DNA of 11,926 nucleotides, taken from positions 1 to 11,926 of the forward strand of contig DDYO01000267.1 in the NCBI GenBank assembly GCA_002348045.1, in the 5' to 3' direction. Source of the stretch: Anaerolineales bacterium UBA2232 (GTDB lineage Bacteria; Chloroflexota; Anaerolineae; UBA2200). Shown here one piece after another: positions 281-11,735 of the stretch. Position 1 is the first letter of the stretch; every line of letters starts with the position of its first letter. The notes beneath the pieces are model-generated. The model saw only the letters and a program-made list of their open reading frames with translations. It did no database searches and was not told the origin of the DNA. The position numbers and the translations under genes are program-made.

Positions 281-1069
281 CTAGCCGCTTCGACCGTTCA
301 GGACCTCCAACACCTGAGGCAGAAGGCTGGCATTAGTGGCCAGGGCCTCGCCGCCATAGATCGTAGAGTTCCCCTTCCAATCGCCGAAATACCCGCCTGC
401 CTCGTCCAGGATAGGCGGGAACGGGCCACAATCCCAGGTCGCCATGGCCGGATCAACCGCGATCTCGGTACGTCCGGTCGCAACCAGAAGATAACCATAG
501 GCATCGGTCCACCCAGCGCAGTAGCCGGCCTGGCGTTGCAGCGCCTCCCAGACCTCCCCCTTGCCCCTTCCCCAAAAGCTCGGAGATCCACCCGTAAACG
601 TCACGACCGCTCGGTCCAACTCAGCCACAGTAGAGACCCGTGCCCGGCGTCCGTTCCACCAGCAGCCCTTGCCGGTTGCCGCGCACAGCATCTCGTCCAG
701 CGCCGGGTAGTACGCTGCTCCAACTTGCACGTGACCTTCGATCTCCAGGCCAATGAGAACCGCATAGAGGGGGACCCCGCACACAAATGAACGCGTGCCG
801 TCAATAGGGTCAACGAACCACCGATGATGGCTGGCAGAGGGGCCGGTCTTCTCCGGGAGCTCCTCCCCCACGATGCCGTGGTCAGGATACCGCTCCTCGA
901 TGCGCTGTCGAATGAGTTCCTCCGCCAAGCGATCTGCAACCGTGACAGGGGTGGCATCTGCTTTCATGTGCGGGGAAACGCCGGTCTTGAAATAGCCCAA
1001 GGTCAGCCGCCCCGCGGCGTAGGCGGTCTCGGTAGCGAACTCGAGGTACTCCTCTAGCGCCTCTGTCAT
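281..1069 (-). CDS. hisN: Inositol-monophosphatase-family phosphatase, probably histidinol-phosphatase
   Basis: This 262-aa protein has the usual length and motif order of the Mg2+-dependent inositol monophosphatase fold. The metal-binding motifs are GEE at residues 68-70, WFVDPIDGTRSF at 84-95 (Asp87 and Asp90 as ligands) and WDCGPFPPILDEAGG at 212-226 (Asp213). The DPIDGTRSF form and the late DEAGG block match the HisN-type subgroup, whose members hydrolyse L-histidinol phosphate in histidine synthesis. Fructose-1,6-bisphosphatase, inositol-phosphate or PAP phosphatase activity cannot be excluded from sequence alone. The usual WDxAA motif reads WDCGP here. The start ATG at 1069 follows a GGGAGG site with about 4 nt spacing, and a clear promoter lies about 50 nt upstream. 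No other his gene is nearby, so the pathway assignment rests on family resemblance only. Confidence 0.85.
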   Translation of the reverse strand: MTEALEEYLEFATETAYAAGRLTLGYFKTGVSPHMKADATPVTVADRLAEELIRQRIEERYPDHGIVGEELPEKTGPSASHHRWFVDPIDGTRSFVCGVPLYAVLIGLEIEGHVQVGAAYYPALDEMLCAATGKGCWWNGRRARVSTVAELDRAVVTFTGGSPSFWGRGKGEVWEALQRQAGYCAGWTDAYGYLLVATGRTEIAVDPAMATWDCGPFPPILDEAGGYFGDWKGNSTIYGGEALATNASLLPQVLEVLNGRSG

Positions 1070-1188: not shown

Positions 1189-1217
1189 TTGTGCTGGTGT
1201 CGGTATTGTCCTATAAT
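1189..1217 (+). promoter_or_regulatory. Putative promoter for the PPC-cupin pair
   Basis: A perfect -10 hexamer TATAAT lies at 1212-1217. A partial -35 (TTGTGC, 1189-1194) sits 17 nt upstream and matches only in its TTG. Transcription would begin near 1224, about 290 nt before the PPC gene. It is arranged back to back with the HisN-like promoter, their -35 elements about 30 nt apart, so a regulator bound between could affect both. Confidence 0.55.
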
Positions 1218-1264
1218 CGCCCTGCTACCTTACGGGTGCGCGGGATGTCGAAGCGTAGGGCTGG

Positions 1265-1311
1265 CGCGGCCTGGCAGTGCACGAGAGCGCGGTCATCAGT
1301 GCCAGGCCGCG
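1265..1311 (+). repeat. Perfect 12-bp inverted repeat (RNA hairpin or operator)
   Basis: CGCGGCCTGGCA at 1265-1276 is matched exactly by its reverse complement TGCCAGGCCGCG at 1300-1311, with a 23-nt loop. As RNA this would be a very stable GC-rich hairpin inside the PPC leader. As DNA it could be a binding site for a dimeric regulator, although the arms are long and the spacing wide for that. Confidence 0.7.
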
Positions 1312-1500
1312 TGGACATCATGGCTCCGTCAGCCCATCACGTTCGACTTTGCCAAGGCCCGAATGCGAGTTCAGCTGTCCTGCCGGTTCAAGACCATCAC
1401 TGCCGGTGGACGCCTTCCGATGATGGATCACTCAGCTGACGAGCCCGCTGGTGCAGACGCAAGCCCGCCAGCCCAGTGGGCCCCAATACGCGGAACCGCC

Positions 1501-1506
1501 AGGAGG
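1501..1506 (+). promoter_or_regulatory. Ribosome binding site fixing the PPC start
   Basis: A perfect AGGAGG lies 6 nt before the ATG at 1513. It decides the start of the PPC protein against a frame that stays open upstream to about 1189. Confidence 0.85.
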
Positions 1507-1512
1507 CAACCG

Positions 1513-1968
1513 ATGGAGTTCGCATCCCTACACTGTGGTCAGATATACATCGTGCGCATTGATCCGGGTGAAGATGTGCTCGCCGCGATTGAGAGCTTTC
1601 TTCAGGAATCCAAGATACGACAGGCTGTCGTCCTGGGTGGTTATGGAACCCTGGCCGCGTACCACGTTCACTGGGTTACTCATAACCGACTGCCTGCTGA
1701 GAACCGCTACGGACACGGGGAGGGTGGAATCGAGATCCTCTCCATGAATGGTCTGGTCGTGGATGGCCGACCCCACGTCCACATCTCACTGTCCAACGCA
1801 CACGGGGCGTTTGGAGGCCACCTGGAATCGGGATGCATCGCCTATGTGGTCTGTGAGATGTTCTTGGCCGAAGTAGATGGGCTGCAGCTCAGCCGCCAGC
1901 GGGTGCCCATTTCGGTGGAAGGGATGGGCCAGGGGACTACGAGCAGGCTGACCTTTGAACAGAAATAA
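1513..1968 (+). CDS. PPC-domain (DUF296) protein
   Basis: This 151-aa protein is a single PPC (plants and prokaryotes conserved) domain. Visible hallmarks are the hydrophobic beta strand and glycine turn QAVVLGGYGTL (37-47), the strand ending GRPHVHISLS (85-94) and the family-defining GGHLESG (101-107), followed by YVVCEMFLAEV (111-121). His88, His90 and His103 are at positions usually conserved in prokaryotic members, where they may bind metal. In plants the domain is found in AT-hook (AHL) proteins. Prokaryotic stand-alone members form trimers and mostly lack a proven function. The same-strand cupin gene starts 59 nt after its stop and is probably cotranscribed. There is no AT-hook, signal peptide or membrane segment, so a cytoplasmic protein is expected. 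The biochemical role is unknown. Confidence 0.88.
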   Translation: MEFASLHCGQIYIVRIDPGEDVLAAIESFLQESKIRQAVVLGGYGTLAAYHVHWVTHNRLPAENRYGHGEGGIEILSMNGLVVDGRPHVHISLSNAHGAFGGHLESGCIAYVVCEMFLAEVDGLQLSRQRVPISVEGMGQGTTSRLTFEQK

Positions 1969-2015
1969 TCACCGCGCCACCCTGGGCACTGTAGCAAACC
2001 GCGAACAAGGTGAAT

Positions 2016-2021
2016 AAGGAG
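2016..2021 (+). promoter_or_regulatory. Ribosome binding site fixing the cupin start
   Basis: AAGGAG lies 6 nt before the ATG at 2028. The in-frame GTG at 2010 overlaps this region and has no site of its own, so the ATG is preferred. Confidence 0.75.
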
Positions 2022-2027
2022 AAAAAG

Positions 2028-2366
2028 ATGCCCATTCAGACCTATGCCGACTCTGCAGCCGTCCAGTTCCAACCGGGCGCGGAACGGAGAGTATCGTTCA
2101 CTGACAACTTGATGATGGTAGTGATCGACTTCAACGATGGCCCTCGCCAGGGCGTGGTGCCTCCCCACTCTCATCCCCATGAGCAGATCTCGTGCGTTGC
2201 CGCTGGGGAAATACTGGTCCACATGGAAGGCCAGGCCACGCGACTGGGACCCGGGGACTTTATCATCGCACCTTCTGGCGTTGCCCACGGCATTGACACA
2301 CTGTCGCCGCATGCACGCGTGATTGACTGCTTCACGCCCATCCGAGAGGACTTTGTTCCCGTCTAG
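2028..2366 (+). CDS. Single-domain cupin protein
   Basis: This 112-aa protein has both cupin motifs. Motif 1 is VPPHSHPHEQISCVAAGE (44-61), with His47, His49 and Glu52 as likely metal ligands and an extra His51. Motif 2 is GPGDFIIAPSGVAHGI (74-89), with His87 as the fourth ligand. The short spacing between motifs and the overall length are typical of small monocupins, which bind a divalent metal and serve as isomerases, dioxygenases, lyases or sugar sensors. The complete 3-His/1-Glu set suggests a metal-loaded, active protein, but the substrate cannot be told. It sits just behind the PPC-domain gene in an apparent two-gene unit and converges on the glycerate kinase gene. No export signal is visible. 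Confidence 0.88.
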   Translation: MPIQTYADSAAVQFQPGAERRVSFTDNLMMVVIDFNDGPRQGVVPPHSHPHEQISCVAAGEILVHMEGQATRLGPGDFIIAPSGVAHGIDTLSPHARVIDCFTPIREDFVPV

Positions 2367-2453: not shown

Positions 2454-3908
2454 TCAGTCCTTGCCGCTGCCGCGGACCCGTCCTGACACATAGATGACGC
2501 GCAAGTCACGGACGTTGGTCTTACCGACACCTGTGTCGATGGCGTCTCCCAGGCGTTTGAGCACAGGCGTGGAATTGTGTCTCCGGAGCTCAAGGCCGAC
2601 GTCGATCCCTGCCTGCCGCGCCCGCTCCATCGTGGTTCCGTCCACGATCCCACCTGCAAGGTCGGTTGGACCATCGGTGCCGTCAGAGTCAGCCGACGCG
2701 ATGACAATCCCCTCGCTTCCTTCAATGCGGGGAGCAGCAGCCAGGACGAACTCCTGATTTCTACCACCGACTCCCTGCTCCCTGCCCACCGTGACAACTA
2801 GCTCACCGCCGCACAGCAGCACACAGGGAGGCTCCAGCGGCCGACCATACGTCTCAATTTCCTGAGAGATGTAGGCCAGCGTATTCGCCGCCGGCTGTGC
2901 TTCCACATCGCTGAGGCTTGAAATCAGGATGGTCGCGGCCAGCCCCATGGACTGCGCCTTCTTGAGGGCTGCCTCCAACATGAACTCGGGGCCCATGACG
3001 CGGAAATAGTACCGCGGTTTATCATACCACTCCTCAGGGCGCAGCGGCAGATACTTTGGGTCTGCCACCGTTAGAAAATCGCGCACCGACTGCGGAACTT
3101 GGTCCCAGCAGCCATACCGCTTGAGCAGATCGATGGCATAGCGGTAAGGGTCATCCTCCCGCTGGGGCCGGTTCAGATGGACACGGAGGTCTGGGGGCAG
3201 CTCAGTCGTCCCGATGTGAATCAAGGTGGCCTCGCCAACATACCGCGCGTGGCGCAGCCGCACGATCGACATCAAGTTGCGCACAGCATTGATCTCTGGC
3301 ATGGATGCCCCGCATCCAAAGTAAAGGATGCGATTCACTTCCTGAAGGTCCTGCAAGGAAACCCCTGGCGCAGGAAGCGTCATCAGTGCCGAGCCGCCAC
3401 CGGATTCGCTCAAGAACACGATGTCATCCTTGCGCGCGTTGTTTTCGATGGCAAGGATTCTGCTCGCTCCTGCGACACTGTCTTCATCCGGCAGGGGATG
3501 TCCTGCCAAAGTCACTGGGATTCGTCGAAGGTAGACCTCATCACCCTTCTTGGCATTCACCTGTCCATCGGTGATGAGGTCGCCCAGGATTTCCTCCAGC
3601 GCCTGGGCCTGGCGCTGAGCCGCCTTCCCTCCGCCCACCACATAGATGCGGCCCACCTGAGAGAGATCAAAGACTAGCGGCCCTGACGGCGTCGGTCTGG
3701 GGGAATACGCCGGATGCAAGGGGTCCAGAGGATCGGGATGCTGCAGATCGTTCCCGACAAGGAGCTTGTTGCCCTCCAGGCGCACCAGGCTCTTGACCCG
3801 ATCGTAGGGATCACCGCCTTTGAGCCCAGCTTCCAAGATGTCCAAGACCACACCGCGCGCGACGGCATTACCATGGGCCAAGAGCTGCTCCCGGTTCCTG
3901 ATAATCAC
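2454..3908 (-). CDS. Glycerate 2-kinase (MOFRL/GckA family)
   Basis: This 484-aa cytoplasmic enzyme should phosphorylate D-glycerate with ATP to 2-phosphoglycerate, feeding glycerate from sugar-acid, glyoxylate or serine breakdown into glycolysis. Family motifs appear in order: VVGGGKAA (90-97, with the conserved Lys95), SESGGGSALM (167-176), FGCGASMPEINAVR (197-210), LCGGELVVTVG (365-375), GGRNQEFVLA (381-390, core of the MOFRL domain), SADSDGTDGPTDLAGG (405-420) and the C-terminal GVGKTNVRDLR (460-470). It is somewhat longer than usual for the family; part of the excess appears to lie around residues 45-75. The start is GTG at 3908, backed by AGGAGG at 3921-3916 with 7 nt spacing. It lies 136 nt behind the transporter operon on the same strand, so it may be read from that operon or from its own unseen promoter. 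No functional link to the transporter is evident. Confidence 0.92.
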   Translation of the reverse strand: MIIRNREQLLAHGNAVARGVVLDILEAGLKGGDPYDRVKSLVRLEGNKLLVGNDLQHPDPLDPLHPAYSPRPTPSGPLVFDLSQVGRIYVVGGGKAAQRQAQALEEILGDLITDGQVNAKKGDEVYLRRIPVTLAGHPLPDEDSVAGASRILAIENNARKDDIVFLSESGGGSALMTLPAPGVSLQDLQEVNRILYFGCGASMPEINAVRNLMSIVRLRHARYVGEATLIHIGTTELPPDLRVHLNRPQREDDPYRYAIDLLKRYGCWDQVPQSVRDFLTVADPKYLPLRPEEWYDKPRYYFRVMGPEFMLEAALKKAQSMGLAATILISSLSDVEAQPAANTLAYISQEIETYGRPLEPPCVLLCGGELVVTVGREQGVGGRNQEFVLAAAPRIEGSEGIVIASADSDGTDGPTDLAGGIVDGTTMERARQAGIDVGLELRRHNSTPVLKRLGDAIDTGVGKTNVRDLRVIYVSGRVRGSGKD

Positions 3909-4044: not shown

Positions 4045-7000
4045 CTAGTAGCCCTTTTCGTGACCGAGGTACATCACGGCCAGGGACACAACGCGTCCGG
4101 CATCGTACAGCCTTTCCAGCTCAACGGTGTCCGCCGTATCGTCTGGGGTGCGTGCCATCAGATAGCTCCCTTCCCAGCTCAGCGCAACGTAAGGGATCTT
4201 GCGATCAGGAATGGGATAGAGATAAGCATAGGCACCGTACATGGAGGTACCGGATGTGCTGACATTGACCTTGGACCGCCGCGCGGCTTGCTGCAGCACT
4301 TCCGTCAGGCGCCCGCTGGTACCTCGCTGCAGGACGAGGGTGTGCTCGGAGCCAGCGCCCAGCCCCACCAACTCAATCACCGCCTTGATACGATAGCTCT
4401 CTGCGAATCCCAGACGCGCCCGCAGCATGTGGGCAAAATCCTGAGGCGCGTGCTGCTCAGCGCCGGCCCAAGCCACGAACAAGATCGTTCTGCGTGGCTG
4501 ATAGTCGGCCTCCTTGATCAATCGTGCCGTCTCCAGCAAAACCGAAACGCCGCTGGCGTTCTGATTAGCGCCTGCGTATATCGTTCCGTCATAGTCACAG
4601 CCCTGGCCATCGTAGGAGGCCAGGAGGATGATCAGTTCATTGTCCAGTTCCTCGTCATAGCCTGGCAGAATGGCCTGTACATACGGAGGATACGCCGTTT
4701 CGATGTCCTTGACCGCCATGGTCGCATCAGCATATACGCCCGTGCGCCAGAGAAACCCATCGTTAGCGCCCAAGGATGCCTGCAGCTGCACGAATTCCTG
4801 CAGTGAATGGCCCGATCTGCGAAGAATTGTCTCGGCCACGTCTGGCGCAATGTACAGATGCGGGATGTTGGAGAACCAGATATTACTCGATGCGCTAGGC
4901 TTGTACGTTAGCTGTCTCTGGGTCAGGTGCTCTTCATTCGGAGCAACCACCAGTACAGCGCTATCGCCGGCTACGGCTTGCAGTGGGTAGGGCAGGCCCT
5001 GGGTAACCAGAAGCGTCTTCCCATAGAAGTCGGCCGGCTGCGCATCAATCCCTTCCGGCCACTTGGCAGCGCCGGCGTTGACACCCAGCACCAAGACCTC
5101 GCTCTGGGTCTTGTTGACAGAGTGGGCTCCATCGGGCACCTCGGCGTAATCCTCCCGATACGCCATGGCGAGGAGGACCTGTCCCAGCCCATCCTTGAGT
5201 TGAAGGTAGGGAGTCTGGGCCAAAGATCGATATCTCAGCTCCTTTGGAGCAAAGTAGTTCAACAGCCCATCGTCGTCAACGCTCGCGGGCTGCAGACCAA
5301 TAGACCTGAACTGCTCGGCAATGTACTCGGCTGCCAAGGCCAGTCCATCGCTGCCCACGGCTCTCCCTGTAAGTTCCTCGGACGCCAGACGCTCGACATC
5401 GGCCATGGCGCGTGTAGCGCTGAACTCGCTCGCCGGAGCGACAAACTGCGGCCACGCACCGGTACCTTCGGCCGCAGCCACCAGCAGCACGGCTAAACCC
5501 AGGGCCGCCGCTATGGTCCAGCGGTTGACAATGCGGTGCATCGACAAGGTAAGACGTTCTGTCAGCCGTCGCAGTCCCTCACCAAAGAGATTAAACCCGA
5601 TGATGGCAACGGTAAAGGTGAGAGCCGGGTAGAACGTCATCCAGGGTTGGCTGCGGAAGCTGCGCCAAGTGTTCGAGAGCATCACGCCCCACTCTGGAAC
5701 GTCAAAGTACGTGACCGCTGCGTCGAGGGTGTTGCGGGTGGCCCATCCTCCGCCGATGAACAGGCCAATGAAGCCTAGCTCTCCCAACAGCATGAGCACG
5801 CCGCCCATCTCCAGGAAGGCCAGGATGACCAGCGAGGGAAGGATGTTGGGCAGAACGTGACGTGCCAGCAATTGCACATCACCCAGCCCCGTCGCCAGCG
5901 CACCCTCCACATAGTCCTGCTGGCGGATGCGCATGACTTGGCCGCGCACGTGCTGGCTGACTTCACCCCATCCAACCAGACACAGCGCCAGGGCAAAGAC
6001 CCACAGACCCTCTTGGATGCCCAGGGCATAGATCAGCAACATCGCCAGCAACAGCGACGGAAACGCAGCCATCACCTGGTTCAAGCCACTCAGCGCACGA
6101 TCCAGCAGACTACCGGAGAACCAGCCTGCCAACGCGCCCAGAACTATCCCCAGTATCATACGGGCGACAACCGCAAAAAACGCCAGACCCAGTGTCCTCC
6201 GCGCTCCAAAGAGCAATAGGCTCAGGATATCGCGGCCTTGTGCATCGGTGCCCATTGGAGAAGTGGCCGAAGGCGGAAACGGCGCATATCGGTCGACACC
6301 ATCAAGGGAAATCCTGGCAACCGGGCTGTAGGGGCTGGAAGGAGCGACCGCCTGCCCGAAAATGACCATTGCCAGCATCACAGCCAAGACAAGTGCACCA
6401 ACGGTGAACGGCACGCTGCCTGCTGTGCTCTGCACCCATGCCCGAGCGCGCTCGCGCCGTATCTTGGCATCCCTCATTCTCTGATCGTCCGATACGGGTT
6501 CTTTCGGGCGGAGCGCCCGCCGCGGTTCGCCACGGGCCGCCAGAGCCTGGAGCCCCTCCTCAAACCAGTGTTTGAGGCGGCGAGGCTGCTCGCGTAGGCT
6601 TGTCCAAGTAGACGCCAACAAGCCTATCCAGCTGTTGGGGACGGTAAGGCCCATGTCCGCATTGCGCATCCGCGGATCCATGTGTCGATACAGGTGCTCC
6701 AAGAAGACGTGAAGCAGCACGAACATCAAACCGAGGATCAGGATGAGGGTGGCTGCCAGGTCCGGGTAGTGGTTTCGGATGGCCATGAGCAGCATCTCGC
6801 CCATCCCAGGCCACTGGAACAAGGTCTCGACCACCGGAAGGCTTGACAGGGAGAACCGCAGCGAGGTGCCCACGCTGGTCAGAATAGGCACTGCCGCATT
6901 CGGCAGCGCATGCCGAGTCAGAACCGTTATTGGAGCCAATCCTTTTGCCCGCGCCGTCCGAACATAATCTGCGTCAAGCACTTCGCCCAGGGCCACCGCC

Positions 7001-8373
7001 GACACCCTGGCAATCTGAGCGATTGGCCGCGCAGCCAGGACCACGGCAGGAAGGATCAAGTGGCGGTCCCAGCCAAAGCCGCCCACGGGCACCAGCATGA
7101 CGCCCGTGTTTCGGTAAAAGTGGATTTCGGCGATCTGAAGCAAAAGGGCCAGGAAAAAGCTGGGCGTGGACACACCGGCAATGGACAATAGCAGAAAAAC
7201 CAGGGAGACCCTTCGATGCCGGACCGCAGCGGCGATGACTCCCAGCGTGACGCCCACGATCGTGCCTATCATCAGCGACACCAGCAGCAGTCCAAGGCTC
7301 TTGCCCGCTGTCCTGGCCACTGCCTCGGCCACGGTGTGCGTACGTTCGGTGGACCAGTACACGAACCGGGTTTCATAATAGTAGGAGCCCAGGTTGCCCG
7401 TGATCAGGTTTCGAACGTAGTGAGTGGACTGCGTCACGGCACTCGAGAGCCCCGAGCCCCAGTCAGCCGTTGCCCCTGACCCACCCATGGCCGCCATATT
7501 CATGCCCACGAAAGTTAGAAAGATGATCAGCAGTGCGACGGTAATGGTGTAGGCCAGCGGCTTCGCAACCGCCCCCAGCAGGGGAGCAACGGGCCTCAAC
7601 ATCGGCCAGATGTCATGGTCGTATACATCGAGCACAAGGTCGCTTGTGCTGAGATCTTCGCCGGGAGAGGGCTGGAAGACGGTCCCGTCAGTCGGCATCG
7701 GCACAGTCCGAGAGGCGCTTTGAGCAATCTCGCTTCGCACCGTCCCCACCAGCAGCGCGACCTCCTCTTCCGAACACAGCCGCGCCAGAGTTGACATGAA
7801 CCGTGCCGAGTCATCGGGCGCCATTCCCTCGGTTGGCTCATCTGCCAGAACAACTTGGGGATCGGTCACCAGGGCCCGCGCCAGCGCTACCAGGTGCTGC
7901 TCATATGGGTCCAGACTTCCTGGGGCGCTGTGAAGCCGGTCTGCCAGCTCCACGCGCTCCAGCAGGTTTCGGCCGCGAGTCTCTGCCACGGAGCGCGACA
8001 CACCCTGCCTGCGCAGCGGGAACGCGACATTGTCCAACACCGACAAATCCGGCAAGAGATGAGGCTGGCTAAAGACCAGCCCGATTTCTTGTGCTCGAAG
8101 TTTGGCTCGTTGAGGGCGGCTGAGTCTGTGAGCATCGACGCCCCCAACGCGCAACACTCCTCCGGTCAGCTCCGTAAGACCGGACAGCATACCTAGCAAC
8201 AGCCGTATATCGGAGGGGACCTCCCCAAGCACGGCCACGAACTCGCCACTGCGCAGCGCCAGGTCAGGAACACGCCACAGCCGCACCTTTCCGTCAGATG
8301 ACGGGCGGCTTTTGGCCAGTGAATAAGCCTCCAGCACGGGAGATATATTCCTGTATTCGGTCTCCTCGGCCAT
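4045..8373 (-). CDS. Fusion: degenerate ABC ATPase - DppB-like - DppC-like - M28 peptidase-like
   Basis: A single 1442-aa frame joins four modules that are normally separate genes. Residues 14-226 form a LolD/MacB-like ABC nucleotide-binding domain with intact Walker B (VLADEPTEG, 175-183). Its Walker A reads GEVPSDIRL (50-58, no Lys), its signature LDPYE (154-158, not LSGGQ), and its H-loop lacks His. Residues 270-570 are a DppB-like permease (EAA loop DADYVRTARAKGL from 467; FQWPGMGEMLL from 519). Residues 645-945 are a DppC-like permease (MGTDAQGRDILS from 707; DYVEGALATGLG from 820; FNLFGEGLRR from 927). A further membrane segment (950-970) should place the C-terminal M28-like domain outside the membrane. 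That domain carries a PA-like insert (about 1105-1195) and GANQNASG (1268-1275). The expected zinc ligands are replaced (Ser1253, Gln1271, Gln1307, Val1336, Arg1408). The start at 8373 lies 4 nt after the adaptor stop codon and behind AGAGGT. I infer a non-catalytic membrane scaffold or a transporter powered in trans. Confidence 0.85.
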   Translation of the reverse strand: MAEETEYRNISPVLEAYSLAKSRPSSDGKVRLWRVPDLALRSGEFVAVLGEVPSDIRLLLGMLSGLTELTGGVLRVGGVDAHRLSRPQRAKLRAQEIGLVFSQPHLLPDLSVLDNVAFPLRRQGVSRSVAETRGRNLLERVELADRLHSAPGSLDPYEQHLVALARALVTDPQVVLADEPTEGMAPDDSARFMSTLARLCSEEEVALLVGTVRSEIAQSASRTVPMPTDGTVFQPSPGEDLSTSDLVLDVYDHDIWPMLRPVAPLLGAVAKPLAYTITVALLIIFLTFVGMNMAAMGGSGATADWGSGLSSAVTQSTHYVRNLITGNLGSYYYETRFVYWSTERTHTVAEAVARTAGKSLGLLLVSLMIGTIVGVTLGVIAAAVRHRRVSLVFLLLSIAGVSTPSFFLALLLQIAEIHFYRNTGVMLVPVGGFGWDRHLILPAVVLAARPIAQIARVSAVALGEVLDADYVRTARAKGLAPITVLTRHALPNAAVPILTSVGTSLRFSLSSLPVVETLFQWPGMGEMLLMAIRNHYPDLAATLILILGLMFVLLHVFLEHLYRHMDPRMRNADMGLTVPNSWIGLLASTWTSLREQPRRLKHWFEEGLQALAARGEPRRALRPKEPVSDDQRMRDAKIRRERARAWVQSTAGSVPFTVGALVLAVMLAMVIFGQAVAPSSPYSPVARISLDGVDRYAPFPPSATSPMGTDAQGRDILSLLLFGARRTLGLAFFAVVARMILGIVLGALAGWFSGSLLDRALSGLNQVMAAFPSLLLAMLLIYALGIQEGLWVFALALCLVGWGEVSQHVRGQVMRIRQQDYVEGALATGLGDVQLLARHVLPNILPSLVILAFLEMGGVLMLLGELGFIGLFIGGGWATRNTLDAAVTYFDVPEWGVMLSNTWRSFRSQPWMTFYPALTFTVAIIGFNLFGEGLRRLTERLTLSMHRIVNRWTIAAALGLAVLLVAAAEGTGAWPQFVAPASEFSATRAMADVERLASEELTGRAVGSDGLALAAEYIAEQFRSIGLQPASVDDDGLLNYFAPKELRYRSLAQTPYLQLKDGLGQVLLAMAYREDYAEVPDGAHSVNKTQSEVLVLGVNAGAAKWPEGIDAQPADFYGKTLLVTQGLPYPLQAVAGDSAVLVVAPNEEHLTQRQLTYKPSASSNIWFSNIPHLYIAPDVAETILRRSGHSLQEFVQLQASLGANDGFLWRTGVYADATMAVKDIETAYPPYVQAILPGYDEELDNELIILLASYDGQGCDYDGTIYAGANQNASGVSVLLETARLIKEADYQPRRTILFVAWAGAEQHAPQDFAHMLRARLGFAESYRIKAVIELVGLGAGSEHTLVLQRGTSGRLTEVLQQAARRSKVNVSTSGTSMYGAYAYLYPIPDRKIPYVALSWEGSYLMARTPDDTADTVELERLYDAGRVVSLAVMYLGHEKGY

Positions 8374-8377
8374 GTGA

Positions 8378-9550
8378 CTACCGACCTCTGCCACCCGGGA
8401 CATCCAGCTCAACACGCACGGCCATTCCCCAGCGAAGCGCTGGCTCGGCCGTTTCCAACGTCACCAGCGCCTTGTAAAAGACCGCCCCGTTCGCACCCAC
8501 CGTAGGCTCAGGAGAAAGGAAGGTCAGGAATCCACGCAGGCGGCGGTTGCCCAGCGCTGGCACGACGACAATCGCCAGTTGATTGGGCGTTACCACCGCC
8601 GCTCCCCAGTCATCCAGGTCCCGCAGTTCTACCTGCAGCACGCCCAAGTCCGCCACGGTGGCCACAGTCTCTCCGGCTGCCAACCTCTCACCCGATCCTT
8701 TCTCGGTGACAGATGAAACCGTGCCCGATAGAGGCGCCCGCAGGGTTCCTTGCTCCACCATCATCTGTGCCTGTGTCACCGCCAATTCAGCCTGCACCAC
8801 CCGTGCCTCCGCAACACGTTGGGCAGCGATGACACCCGCACCCTCCAGAGCTTCCAGTCTTGCCCTGCTGGCAGCCACCTGACTCTCCGCCTGTTTCAAC
8901 GCTGCTTGGTCTGCCCCCGCCAGTGCCAATTCATATTCTGCCTTTGCCCGCTGGTGGGCGATTGAGGCTTCCTCCAGGGCCAAGGACTCGCGGCGCGCCC
9001 CGATGTCCGGAAGGTGGCGCACGGCATCATAGGCCGCCTGGGCTTGCTGCAGCGCTCGCACAGCTTGATGCAGTTCGGCCTCGGCTATTGCGACCTCCTG
9101 CGGCAACGGTCCAGAGGCGAGTTTGTCGTAGGCCGCCTGCGCTGCCTGGTAGGCGGCCTGAGCAGCAGCTAACTCTGGATGGGACGGCGCTGCCTGCGCC
9201 AAGTCAAGGGCGGCCCGGGCGCTCTCCAGCTCGGCAAGAGCCAACTGCAACTGCAACTCCATTTCGCCGGTCAAGAGCTGTGCCAGGGGCTCGCCCTGTG
9301 TCACCGTCATCCCCACCGTGGCAGTGATCACGTCCAGCTGCCCGCCGTCCCCAAAGCTCAGCCTCTGCAAACGGGATGGCACCACTATGCCGGTCACGCG
9401 CACCACAGGAACTCCTTCAGAAGCAGTCCCTTGGGACAGCGAAGCCGGGCCGGGGTCTCGCAGACGCTCGACAAACCATCGTTGGCCGACGACCGCCGCC
9501 GTGCCAAGGATCAGCACAAGAGCGACAATGATGAACAGCATCCTTCTCAT
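8378..9550 (-). CDS. HlyD-type membrane fusion (periplasmic adaptor) protein
   Basis: This 390-aa protein has one N-terminal membrane anchor (about residues 4-21). It continues with the first half of a biotinyl-lipoyl-like hairpin (ATVGMTVTQGEPLAQL, 77-92) and a long Ala/Gln/Glu-rich coiled coil (about 95-265, with repeats such as AAYQAAQAAYDKL). The second lipoyl half (GTLRAPLSGTVSSV, 268-281, through VATVADL, 296-302) and a beta-barrel domain (about 303-385) complete it. This is the HlyD/MacA adaptor layout; such proteins bridge an inner-membrane transporter to the cell exterior or an outer-membrane channel. It lies 16 nt downstream of the FtsX-type permease and 4 nt upstream of the fusion gene, as expected for a MacAB-like assembly. 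The start at 9550 is set by a GGGAGG site; the frame stays open upstream but overlaps the permease gene. The cargo is unknown. Confidence 0.88.
   Translation of the reverse strand: MRRMLFIIVALVLILGTAAVVGQRWFVERLRDPGPASLSQGTASEGVPVVRVTGIVVPSRLQRLSFGDGGQLDVITATVGMTVTQGEPLAQLLTGEMELQLQLALAELESARAALDLAQAAPSHPELAAAQAAYQAAQAAYDKLASGPLPQEVAIAEAELHQAVRALQQAQAAYDAVRHLPDIGARRESLALEEASIAHQRAKAEYELALAGADQAALKQAESQVAASRARLEALEGAGVIAAQRVAEARVVQAELAVTQAQMMVEQGTLRAPLSGTVSSVTEKGSGERLAAGETVATVADLGVLQVELRDLDDWGAAVVTPNQLAIVVVPALGNRRLRGFLTFLSPEPTVGANGAVFYKALVTLETAEPALRWGMAVRVELDVPGGRGR
8384..8389 (-). promoter_or_regulatory. Ribosome binding site for the fusion gene
   Basis: AGAGGT lies inside the last codons of the adaptor gene, 10 nt before the ATG at 8373. 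The in-frame GTG (8415) and ATG (8403) further upstream lack a comparable site and would overlap the adaptor gene. Translational coupling to the adaptor is likely. Confidence 0.5.
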
Positions 9551-9558
9551 GGACGCAA

Positions 9559-9564
9559 CCTCCC
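9559..9564 (-). promoter_or_regulatory. Ribosome binding site fixing the adaptor start
   Basis: GGGAGG lies 8 nt before the ATG at 9550 and directly after the permease stop codon (9569-9567). It favours this start over the open frame reaching back to 9613. Confidence 0.75.
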
Positions 9565-9566
9565 GA

Positions 9567-11735
9567 TCATCCTTCAATGGCTGGTTCTGTGCTGTACAAA
9601 AGCGCAGCGACATCTCTTCGCACCGCGCGCACTGCCGTCGGTATGGCTGTCAACACCGCGGTGAGTAGTGCGCAAGCAATCGGCCACGCTACCGCCTGCG
9701 GCGTCAGCAATAGGGGGGATGGCACCATCGGCTCCAGGACCTCCAAGAGAGTGACGATCCTCCATCCCAAGAAACTCCCCAATAGGGAAGCGGCCCCAAC
9801 CCAACTGAGAGTTAGTTCGGTGTATTCTGCGATGATTCTCCCGTCGTCGACGCCCATGGCTTTGGACAGGGCAACCCGCTTCCGATCTTGAACGAGCCGG
9901 CCACCCACTGCCGCCTGTATCGCGAACCCGCTAGCCGCAAACAGCATTAAAGAGCATCCGGCCACGAGGGCCAAGTATAGGTCGCTGCCATGACGGATAA
10001 GACCTCGTGAGCTGGATAAAGTCAGCGTCCCTGCTGCGGGGTACGCGCTTACGATTTCCGCCATCCGATCTTCGACGGTCTGCACCCTCACCCCACCCAT
10101 CCTATCGGCCACCAGCCTCAGGTAGTAGGCCTTCTGGTCCGGATCTCGGCTGGGCGGTATGAGCAAGGTTAATTCGCCTTGGGTTGAAGGGTCCCTAAAC
10201 ACGCGACGGAGACCTTCCAGAGACATCTGGACCCGATAGTTCATGTCCGTTCCAGGCCCGTACATCAGCCGCTTGTGGATACCCACCACCGTCAGATCAA
10301 CTCCCCGCACGGGCAGGAGCATGTCGGGGCAAAGACCCAGATGAAGCGCCAGGTCATGCCCCACAGTGACCTCATACCATACGTTGGGATCAGCCAGTCT
10401 GCCCGCCTCCAATCCTATGGAATAGGGAACGGTCAGGGTCCCAACGCCTCCACGGATGTCCAGGCCCACCGCATAGCCGGCGCTGGCTTCGCTGCCCAGC
10501 CACCTGTCGCGTTCACGTGCTAGTGGACCGCCCCTGGCTTCGATGACGTAGCCCCTTGTGCCGGGGAGTCCCAGAGCGGCTCGGATAAAGTCAGGCGTCG
10601 CCGGTACACCCATGAGGGTGATCCGGTCAGAGGCTGTCCGTGCAGCGTCGCCCAGGGCTAGCCTCAATGAGTCGCGGAGGGCGCCCACTACCGTTGTCGA
10701 TCCCACTGCAAGGGCAACTGTCGCGACTACTGCCGCGGTGCGCATTGTAGCACTGCGTACGAGCGACACCCTGCAAGCCATCCACGCCGTCACCCAGCCT
10801 ATCGCCAGCACCGCTCCCATCACCATCGCGGAGCAGCGCAAGGGAGACAGCGCCAGCGTACGCCTCATGTACCCATTTCCCGCCACCGCAAGCAGCCAGC
10901 CCCCTGTCAAACCCACTAATGACCACACCGTCGCCGGGCGACTCACTGCGGCCCATGAGCGCGTCGCGGCTCCCTGAGCAACGGCCAGAAGCCCCAGGAG
11001 GAGCACGGCCCCTGCAAGAGCCAGAAGCAGCACGCCTCGCTCGCGCCTCGTTGAGTCTGCCTCAGCTGCCGGTGAGGCCACAGAGACCTCTGGCAGTCCC
11101 GTCCAAATAGAAGTGGCAATCGAGTCTGCCGGCAGAAGGCCTGACGTCACCACGACAAACTGATGAGGTATTGAGGCGTATTCGGGCCAGAAGATGCGTC
11201 CAGCGACCATTGAGACTTGGGCCGTATTGCCCGCGTTGCGACCACTGGGTTCCCAGATTCCAACAACTGTAAAGACCTCGCCGCGAATCATCACTGTCGT
11301 GCCAATCCGAAGCCCTAGCTGACTCGCCAACTCGTAACCAACGACGGTCTCGGTCAGACTGTCGGGGTTCGGCAGCCGGCCCTGGCCCACCTTGATCCCC
11401 GGTGCAGGAGGTAGAAACGCCCCGCTGTGGCTGGATGACTCGCCAAAACAGACCCAGGCTTCCCGCCAGCCGGTCTGCCCAACCTCATCGGGCCACCAGC
11501 CAACCCGGTACATCGCCACCGCACCCTCGACTCCGTCCAGTCTATCCAGATACCACAGGGTGCTGACAACATCCAGTCGCTGCTGTGGAACAATGGTAAT
11601 CCAGCGGCCAGACTCCTGCGGCCAGCGACCGTTGGCCCAGGACGCCACCAGAGTAAGGATAGCCACGCCAAGGGCAAGGGCGGCGTATGACCAGGATGGC
11701 CCGTCAGAACGTGCGTGTGACTGATTGAGCGACAT
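9567..11735 (-). CDS. FtsX/MacB-type permease with two tandem modules, no ATPase domain
   Basis: This 722-aa membrane protein looks like two FtsX/MacB modules in one chain. Module 1 has a membrane segment at about 16-35, a large external MacB-like core (to about 232; signature VVGYELASQLGLRIGTTV at 131-148, then VFTVVGIWEPSG) and three segments within 234-322. Module 2 repeats this plan: a segment at 333-353, an external core with EVTVGHDLALHLGLCPDMLL (455-474) and LTVVGIHKRL (481-490), then three segments within 585-702. The cytoplasmic loop RKRVALSKAMGVDDGRIIAEY (618-638) of module 2 is the usual contact with an ATPase. The matching loop of module 1 lacks that pattern. Family members couple ATP hydrolysis inside to movements outside (lipoprotein release, peptide or macrolide export, or activation of hydrolases). 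No ATPase is fused here. It is the first gene of the operon, with ATG at 11735 behind an AGGAAGAAAAGGA stretch. Confidence 0.88.
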   Translation of the reverse strand: MSLNQSHARSDGPSWSYAALALGVAILTLVASWANGRWPQESGRWITIVPQQRLDVVSTLWYLDRLDGVEGAVAMYRVGWWPDEVGQTGWREAWVCFGESSSHSGAFLPPAPGIKVGQGRLPNPDSLTETVVGYELASQLGLRIGTTVMIRGEVFTVVGIWEPSGRNAGNTAQVSMVAGRIFWPEYASIPHQFVVVTSGLLPADSIATSIWTGLPEVSVASPAAEADSTRRERGVLLLALAGAVLLLGLLAVAQGAATRSWAAVSRPATVWSLVGLTGGWLLAVAGNGYMRRTLALSPLRCSAMVMGAVLAIGWVTAWMACRVSLVRSATMRTAAVVATVALAVGSTTVVGALRDSLRLALGDAARTASDRITLMGVPATPDFIRAALGLPGTRGYVIEARGGPLARERDRWLGSEASAGYAVGLDIRGGVGTLTVPYSIGLEAGRLADPNVWYEVTVGHDLALHLGLCPDMLLPVRGVDLTVVGIHKRLMYGPGTDMNYRVQMSLEGLRRVFRDPSTQGELTLLIPPSRDPDQKAYYLRLVADRMGGVRVQTVEDRMAEIVSAYPAAGTLTLSSSRGLIRHGSDLYLALVAGCSLMLFAASGFAIQAAVGGRLVQDRKRVALSKAMGVDDGRIIAEYTELTLSWVGAASLLGSFLGWRIVTLLEVLEPMVPSPLLLTPQAVAWPIACALLTAVLTAIPTAVRAVRRDVAALLYSTEPAIEG

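What the first reader, a model, noticed from the sequence alone, without database searches (positions are those of the whole stretch)
4045..8373. One 1442-aa protein joining an ABC ATPase-like domain, both Dpp-type permeases and an extracellular M28-like domain
An uninterrupted frame of about 4.3 kb carries an NBD, DppB-like, DppC-like, extra membrane segment and M28-like module in order. Dpp/Opp subunits are normally separate proteins, and I do not recall a described system with this architecture. The fused NBD resembles the LolD/MacB class rather than the DppD/F class, so the protein mixes two transporter types. The open frame with preserved membrane pattern and permease motifs argues for selection rather than decay.
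Basis: partly seen in the sequence, partly recalled or inferred. Interest (0 to 1): 0.88.

Follow-up and report, generated by a model that had tools for sequence, protein, structure and literature searches.

The report
Merged peptide transporter with dead enzymes
One giant membrane protein joins a peptide-import channel to two former enzyme parts, an ATP motor and a peptidase, that have both lost their active sites but are kept, which suggests a new way of building a peptide importer that must borrow its motor from elsewhere in the cell.

Summary
In detail: one frame (4045-8373, minus) encodes an ABC ATPase-like domain, DppB, DppC, an extra helix and an M28-like domain, behind HlyD and FtsX genes. 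It is no artefact: 55 other listed proteins carry all three Pfam domains, and 6 of 298 sampled genomes of the Anaerolineales relative's class have it, 6 of 6 in the order FtsX-HlyD-fusion. Best reading: a peptide importer with a tethered pseudo-peptidase receptor, driven in trans by DppD/F, the dead LolD domain being an adaptor to FtsX-HlyD. Function is inferred.

The parts
4045..8373 (-). CDS of the fusion protein (1442 aa from ATG at 8373; longest frame from GTG at 8415; residue numbers in this report count from that GTG)
7687..8343 (-). LolD/MacB-class pseudo-ATPase domain (residues 25-243)
8200..8226 (-). Walker A remnant (residues 64-72; Gly-Lys-Ser/Thr lost)
7891..7917 (-). ABC signature remnant (residues 167-175; Ser-Gly-Gly lost)
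7729..7752 (-). H-loop remnant (residues 222-229; His lost)
6658..7578 (-). DppB/OppB-type permease half (residues 280-586)
6940..6969 (-). DppB coupling loop (residues 483-492) with the RTA motif and Lys491, which falls on E. coli DppB Lys243
   Evidence: PMC12136057 passages
5557..6468 (-). DppC/OppC-type permease half (residues 650-953)
5476..5532 (-). extra membrane helix (residues 962-980) that would put the C-terminal domain outside
   Evidence: hydropathy; topology is inference
4048..5463 (-). M28-like pseudo-peptidase domain (residues 985-1456)
8378..9550 (-). HlyD-family adaptor protein (longest frame 8378-9613; start near 9550 chosen by eye so as not to overlap FtsX)
9567..11735 (-). 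FtsX/MacB_PCD-type permease with a diverged FtsX domain

Best explanation
The protein is a merged ABC system. SHOWN by sequence: FtsX-HlyD-LolD operons and DppB-DppC-M28 permease genes exist separately in related genomes; in the window and its relatives a LolD-class ATPase domain is fused in front of DppB-DppC-M28 and lacks residues needed for ATP hydrolysis, and the M28 domain lacks an intact zinc site. INFERRED: (a) the LolD of such an operon is what was fused; (b) the DppBC halves still form a peptide (or amino-acid) import channel; (c) the M28-like domain, held outside by one extra helix, is a tethered substrate receptor in place of a free DppA-type binding protein; (d) energy comes in trans from a DppD/DppF pair that also serves an ordinary Opp/Dpp operon; (e) the pseudo-LolD domain is an adaptor that docks the importer on the FtsX-HlyD complex, which itself has no intact cognate motor in the operon.
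For: Pseudo-ATPase: of 56 NBDs (window included) GK[S/T] remains in 11, signature second Gly in 0, first Gly in 1, H-loop His in 0, Q-loop Gln in 4 (Arg in 47). Pseudo-M28: 0 of 135 rows keep all six catalytic residues, against 5 of 5 first M28 domains of neighbouring double-M28 peptidases; the window keeps one of six (mapping to Aeromonas aminopeptidase). Origin: order FtsX-HlyD-LolD in 3 of 3 loci that hold a related FtsX without the fusion (L089, L090, L091); in 6 of 6 NBDs tested the best of 9 ATPases is the LolD of L090 (window 119 bits, DppD 46, DppF 42); the 20 fused-NBD rows form one clade in the NBD tree (100/99); on the DppC tree the NBD label needs one change (support 74) inside a set with NBD-less fusions (98). 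Motor in trans: E. coli DppB Lys243, which bonds DppD Glu114 (PMC12136057 passages), falls on window Lys491 (counted) and is Lys in 61 of 61 loci and in all 61 rows of A1; in the column of the likely matching DppD Glu, 53 of 55 fused NBDs have Leu, Val, Trp, Ala or Met and the window has Phe, where DppD and DppF have Glu. DppD/F-type ATPase beside 0 of 6 NBD-fusion loci, 0 of 19 DppC-M28 loci and 3 of 41 NBD-less fusion loci. Of 4 NBD-fusion carriers searched, G001, G146 and G018 each hold one adjacent DppD/F pair at E<=1e-40. Peptidase link: 12 of 19 DppC-M28 loci have a double-M28 protein on the same strand, and 7 listed proteins have a further M28-like region behind the pseudo-M28, with all six residues in 4 of 7 (Pfam checked for two of the seven).
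Against: No experiment exists. The receptor role is by analogy (transferrin receptor as a non-enzymatic M28B relative, PMC9768917 passages). Eleven of 56 NBDs keep Walker A and 35 of 56 the Walker B Glu, so some members may still bind ATP. Mapping E. coli DppD Glu114 to G001 DppD Glu116 is by numbering offset; that alignment was not printed. In the window clade no peptidase gene was seen in the operon. FtsX and HlyD conservation is not explained by import alone. The fourth carrier searched, G127, has four DppD/F-type matches, and two other carriers (G030, G064) were not searched; the genomes are draft, with no completeness figure given. The LolD of the separate operon is the best match, but the NBD tree does not resolve it as sister and its bootstrap had not settled. 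Flanks of some loci are short.
Confidence: 0.55

Rival explanations
1. The pseudo-LolD domain pairs with one active NBD made elsewhere (LolD or Dpp type), forming an asymmetric motor like ABC exporters with one degenerate site, so the fused domain is half of the real motor.
For: One chain has two permease halves and only one NBD, so at least one NBD must come from elsewhere; 11 of 56 NBDs keep Walker A, which could pair with a partner's signature; degenerate sites are described for type I ABC exporters (PMC7756269, search listing with start of abstract).
Against: GK[S/T] is lost in 45 of 56, the window among them, and the signature Gly pair and H-loop His in all 56 but for one first Gly, so in those 45 neither composite site would be complete; the acid of the column that likely contacts the DppB Lys is hydrophobic in 53 of 55 fused NBDs and in free LolD.
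Confidence: 0.2
2. It is no importer but a Type VII (MacB/YbbAP-like) envelope complex: the FtsX-HlyD unit does mechanical work and the fused Dpp-M28 part is a scaffold or a substrate-presenting lid.
For: FtsX and HlyD are kept in 6 of 6 loci; YbbAP-TesA pairs a Type VII transporter with a periplasmic hydrolase (PMC12646458 passages, abstract among them).
Against: The FtsX domain of the window scores 19.5 bits and the six other fusion loci 29.9-51.1, against 126.6-151.3 in the three unfused loci; no LolD-type ATPase other than the fused domain was found in the six loci (two of them, L092 and L093, have downstream flanks under 250 bases); the strongest conservation is in the Dpp halves and their coupling loops.
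Confidence: 0.15
3. The locus is a decaying transporter: the enzyme modules are eroding and the protein is on the way out.
For: Lost motifs in NBD and M28, diverged FtsX; one genome (G049, L088) has a fusion without NBD beside FtsX in two pieces.
Against: 55 other listed proteins with all three domains, DppC half 75% and DppB half 65% mean pairwise identity among 45 rows, coupling-loop Lys in 61 of 61 loci, Q-loop Arg shared by 47 of 56.
Confidence: 0.07

Closest known systems
Dpp/Opp-type peptide ABC importers (E. coli DppABCDF)
   Same: Two permease halves with DppB/DppC fold and kept coupling loops, in the window with the DppB RTA motif and Lys243
   Different: Halves fused in one chain; no DppA-type binding protein and no DppD/F found in the operon; extra M28-like domain and LolD-class pseudo-NBD
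Type VII ABC systems (MacAB, LolCDE, YbbAP-TesA)
   Same: FtsX/MacB_PCD permease, HlyD adaptor and LolD-class NBD in one operon; YbbAP also has a partner hydrolase
   Different: NBD is fused to Dpp permeases and lacks catalytic motifs; FtsX domain diverged
ABC importers with fused substrate-binding domains (GlnPQ, OpuA)
   Same: Receptor domain covalently tied to the membrane domain (start of the abstract of PMC8025302 in the listing; OpuA recalled)
   Different: Those use binding-protein folds (recalled); here an M28 aminopeptidase fold
Transferrin receptor and other non-enzymatic M28 proteins
   Same: M28 fold without catalysis, used for binding; TfR1 is among the fold matches of the window domain (6okd_A, E 9.5e-22)
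   Different: Eukaryotic receptor, not joined to a permease

Membership tests
Dpp/Opp-type ABC peptide importer | two BPD_transp_1 permease halves of B and C type | tested here: met
Dpp/Opp-type ABC peptide importer | coupling (EAA) loops kept in both halves | tested here: met
   B loop Lys and Gly in 61 of 61 loci, RTA Arg in 59 and Thr in 53 of 61; C loop Gly in 66 of 66 and Glu in 64 of 66 rows, window included
Dpp/Opp-type ABC peptide importer | own DppD/DppF ATPases in the operon | tested here: not met
   0 of 6 NBD-fusion loci; none among the window proteins scanned
Dpp/Opp-type ABC peptide importer | free substrate-binding protein of the DppA type beside it | tested here: not met
   0 of 6 NBD-fusion loci; 6 of 41 NBD-less fusion loci have a hit; one binding protein of G001 was the only query
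Type VII ABC system (MacAB/LolCDE kind) | FtsX/MacB_PCD permease plus adaptor in the operon | tested here: met
   the window's FtsX domain (19.5 bits) is under the Pfam cut-off 25.5, its MacB_PCD (45.2) over the cut-off 27
Type VII ABC system (MacAB/LolCDE kind) | catalytic LolD/MacB-class ATPase | tested here: not met
   class and fold yes, catalytic motifs no
M28 aminopeptidase | five zinc ligands and the general base | tested here: not met
   window keeps one of six; 0 of 135 rows keep six
M28 aminopeptidase | M28 fold | tested here: met
   2ek8, E 3.9e-23, TMt 0.68
Any of the above | demonstrated peptide transport | not testable with these tools
   needs uptake assays

The most novel reading that the evidence does not exclude
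A further way to build an ABC importer: the receptor is a dead peptidase tied to the channel, the motor is borrowed from another operon, and a dead motor from a different ABC class is kept as a plug that joins importer and FtsX-HlyD mechanical complex into one envelope-spanning machine, so that handling of peptide-bearing substrates outside is mechanically linked to uptake.
Probability: 0.25. Interest if true: 0.9.

Novelty: new variant of a known kind. Interest (0 to 1): 0.7.

Why it matters
ABC systems are sorted by the class of their permease and motor; this protein joins two classes in one chain and keeps the motor of one of them only in a dead form. The relatives give a series (separate DppB + DppC-M28; DppB-DppC-M28; NBD-DppB-DppC-M28; and, elsewhere, DppB-DppC-M28 with a further M28) in which to study how transporters swap receptors and motors, and a direct test is possible: three carriers hold a single DppD/F pair that would have to serve this permease too. 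It also bears on how uncultured Anaerolineae, thought to live on peptides and other dead-cell matter (recalled), take up peptides.

Tried and rejected
Missed stops or frameshift artefact: rejected, 55 other listed proteins carry all three domains. Self-powered transporter: rejected, motifs gone. Active fused peptidase: rejected for the pseudo-M28. NBD of DppD/F origin: rejected, window 119 bits to a LolD against 46 and 42 to DppD and DppF. A hidden ATPase ORF masked by longer antisense frames: all frames of 80 aa or more were rescanned; none but the fused domain in the six NBD-fusion loci; the rescan did reveal the LolD gene of L089 that my first pass had hidden; weak hits (58-72 bits) to LolD-type or other ABC ATPases lie in L074 and L113, 3.9-4.8 kb off on the other strand. 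My first labels for the M28 Glu pair were off by one column; they were set right from the ungapped alignment before the counts. ABC genes on G001 contigs C8 and C38 were read as candidate orphan DppD/F pairs; scores to DppD/F were 62-74 bits, so I did not take them for such pairs. Docking of the NBD in the AlphaFold2 model could not be read, since no coordinates were among the files. VIA-align rows mostly cover residues 24-243. Printed precedents: none found for the fusion in the listings (open-licence library only; one search gave no paper). Distribution outside the phylum was not measured; one search used exact patterns and found one relative covering permeases and NBD (L001) among 26 loci.

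Rows dropped or special: P0058 (incomplete NBD) is not among the 56 NBDs and fell in the NBD-less group, as did the incomplete entries P0034, P0037, P0061; P0036 has an NBD but hardly any M28 yet counts among the 135. In one search six of ten DppC-M28 rows have a gap at the last His. L095 counts as DppC-M28 and L136-L138 as NBD-less fusions although cut short; L088 counts as NBD-less. Several loci have flanks under 1 kb. The 45 NBDs without Walker A are not one clade. The search tool reported stops inside some matches, among them one TGA in G018, whose frame in L070 is open for 1442 aa.
Full report

IT IS A CONSERVED FAMILY. One search lists 120 of 565 hits; 56 of the 120 (window included) carry all three Pfam domains. 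In 298 genomes drawn from the class of G001 (the Anaerolineales genome of L001), 58 have a match at E <= 1e-100; in 6 of these the match covers the NBD. In 301 genomes drawn from the phylum 4 match, and the only one with the NBD is G001 itself. Around 66 loci I scanned the neighbours with a small panel: T3 (NBD-B-C-M28, 6 loci) has HlyD and FtsX on the same strand in 6 of 6; T2 (B-C-M28, 41 loci) has a hit to an ordinary binding protein in 6, to DppB in 5, DppC in 4, DppF in 3 and DppD in 1, and otherwise mostly none; T1 (C-M28, 19 loci) has a separate DppB in 18, a double-M28 protein on the same strand in 12 and a beta-propeller gene in 6. The one T2 locus with FtsX (L088) groups with T3 on the DppC tree (support 84).

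BOTH ENZYME PARTS ARE DEAD. In 56 NBDs: GK[S/T] of Walker A in 11, signature first Gly in 1 and second Gly in 0, H-loop His in 0, Q-loop Gln in 4 (Arg in 47), Walker B Glu in 35. The window has lost Walker A, Q-loop Gln, signature and H-loop but keeps Walker B Asp-Glu. In 135 M28 domains of fusions none keeps all six catalytic residues (one keeps five); the first M28 of five neighbouring double-M28 proteins keeps six of six in 5 of 5, the last one two to five. By Aeromonas aminopeptidase numbering, mapped, the window has His97 to Ser, Asp117 to Gln, Glu151 to Ala, Asp179 to Val, His256 to Arg, and keeps Glu152 (residue numbers of the aminopeptidase site are recalled and counted on the printed alignment).

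HOW IT AROSE. The FtsX search matched 10 of 298 genomes: the six T3 carriers, G049, and G007, G076 and G219. In the last three the order is FtsX-HlyD-LolD with a separate ATPase, 3 of 3 (L090, L089, L091; the LolD of L091 is cut by the contig end). The LolD of L090 has intact motifs but for Met in place of the signature Leu, and among 9 ATPases it is the best match of 6 of 6 fused NBDs tested. The 20 fused-NBD rows (some identical) form one clade (100/99); which ATPase is sister is unresolved. On the DppC tree (72 rows) the family is one clade against 6 ordinary DppC (100), and T3 needs one change (support 74), inside a set of 15 with T2 rows (98). So the third gene of an FtsX-HlyD-LolD operon was most likely fused once to a DppBC-M28 gene. 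The FtsX domain then diverged: Pfam FtsX 19.5 bits in the window, 29.9-51.1 in six other fusion loci, 126.6-151.3 in the three unfused loci.

HOW IT PROBABLY WORKS. The Dpp halves are the most conserved part (DppC 75%, DppB 65%, M28 51%, NBD 48% mean pairwise identity among 45 rows). In E. coli DppBCDF each permease meets its motor through a coupling loop, with a DppB Lys243 - DppD Glu114 bond, and peptide importers of this kind need a binding protein (PMC12136057, passages). Counted along the alignment, Lys243 falls on window Lys491; it is Lys in 61 of 61 loci, and the C-loop Gly is kept in 66 of 66 rows. In the column of the likely matching DppD Glu (offset mapping; that alignment was not printed) DppD and DppF have Glu, free LolD has Leu or Ile, the window Phe, and 53 of 55 other fused NBDs Leu, Val, Trp, Ala or Met. 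No DppD/F-type ATPase was found near 6 of 6 T3 and 19 of 19 T1 loci; 3 of 41 T2 loci have one. Of four T3 carriers searched, G001, G146 and G018 each have one DppD/F pair and G127 four matches; in G001 the pair lies in an ordinary Opp operon. Shared motors are known for sugar importers (MsmK; PMC4519317 passages). Hence the inference of a motor in trans. The M28-like domain as tethered receptor is inferred from its position, its lost active site, the double-M28 genes beside 12 of 19 T1 loci, the seven long proteins with a further M28-like region (all six residues in 4 of 7) and the precedent of transferrin receptor (PMC9768917 passages). The role of FtsX-HlyD is the least certain step.

NOVELTY. 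I found no printed description in the listings. The parts are known; the combination of a Dpp importer, a dead M28 receptor and a dead Type VII motor in one chain is, to my knowledge, new. I file it as a new variant of a known kind, since it should still work as an ABC importer, and keep the bolder reading in the section on the most novel reading.

Noticed in passing
L064:5964-15530 (gene order similar in L072, L130, L131, L135): Operon of DppB, DppC-pseudo-M28, a PD40 beta-propeller protein and a protein of about 1600 aa with a membrane helix, PA, M28, a weak Peptidase_MA_2 match (26.1 bits, under the cut-off 32.4) and a second M28. The first M28 is intact in 5 of 5 such proteins checked, the last keeps two to five of six residues.
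   Followed up: partly
P0134, P0136-P0139, P0144, P0150 (1662-1702 aa): Long proteins, one named Thermoflexales (P0137), with a further M28-like region behind DppB-DppC-pseudo-M28; all six catalytic residues in 4 of 7; Pfam run on P0136 and P0139 only.
   Followed up: partly
L076:10984-17124; also L096, L098: Proteins of about 2020-2060 aa beside DppC-M28; the L076 one joins a DUF418 membrane region to PA and two M28 matches; the other two were not scanned with Pfam.
   Followed up: no
L088:11806-16969: Genome G049 has a fusion of 1003 aa without NBD and an FtsX gene in two pieces: decay or assembly error.
   Followed up: no
window 2454-3908 (-): DUF4147/MOFRL glycerate-kinase-type gene downstream of the fusion; whether it goes with the fusion elsewhere was not checked.
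   Followed up: no
window 281-1069 (-), 1189-1968 (+), 2010-2366 (+): Inositol-phosphatase/HisN-like gene (250.6 bits, NCBIfam cut-off 275.15), a PCC-domain gene and a small cupin gene; look ordinary.
   Followed up: no
Q-loop column of the pseudo-NBDs: The Q-loop Gln is replaced by Arg in 47 of 56 pseudo-NBDs, a shared change that hints at a kept contact; the window has Ser.
   Followed up: partly
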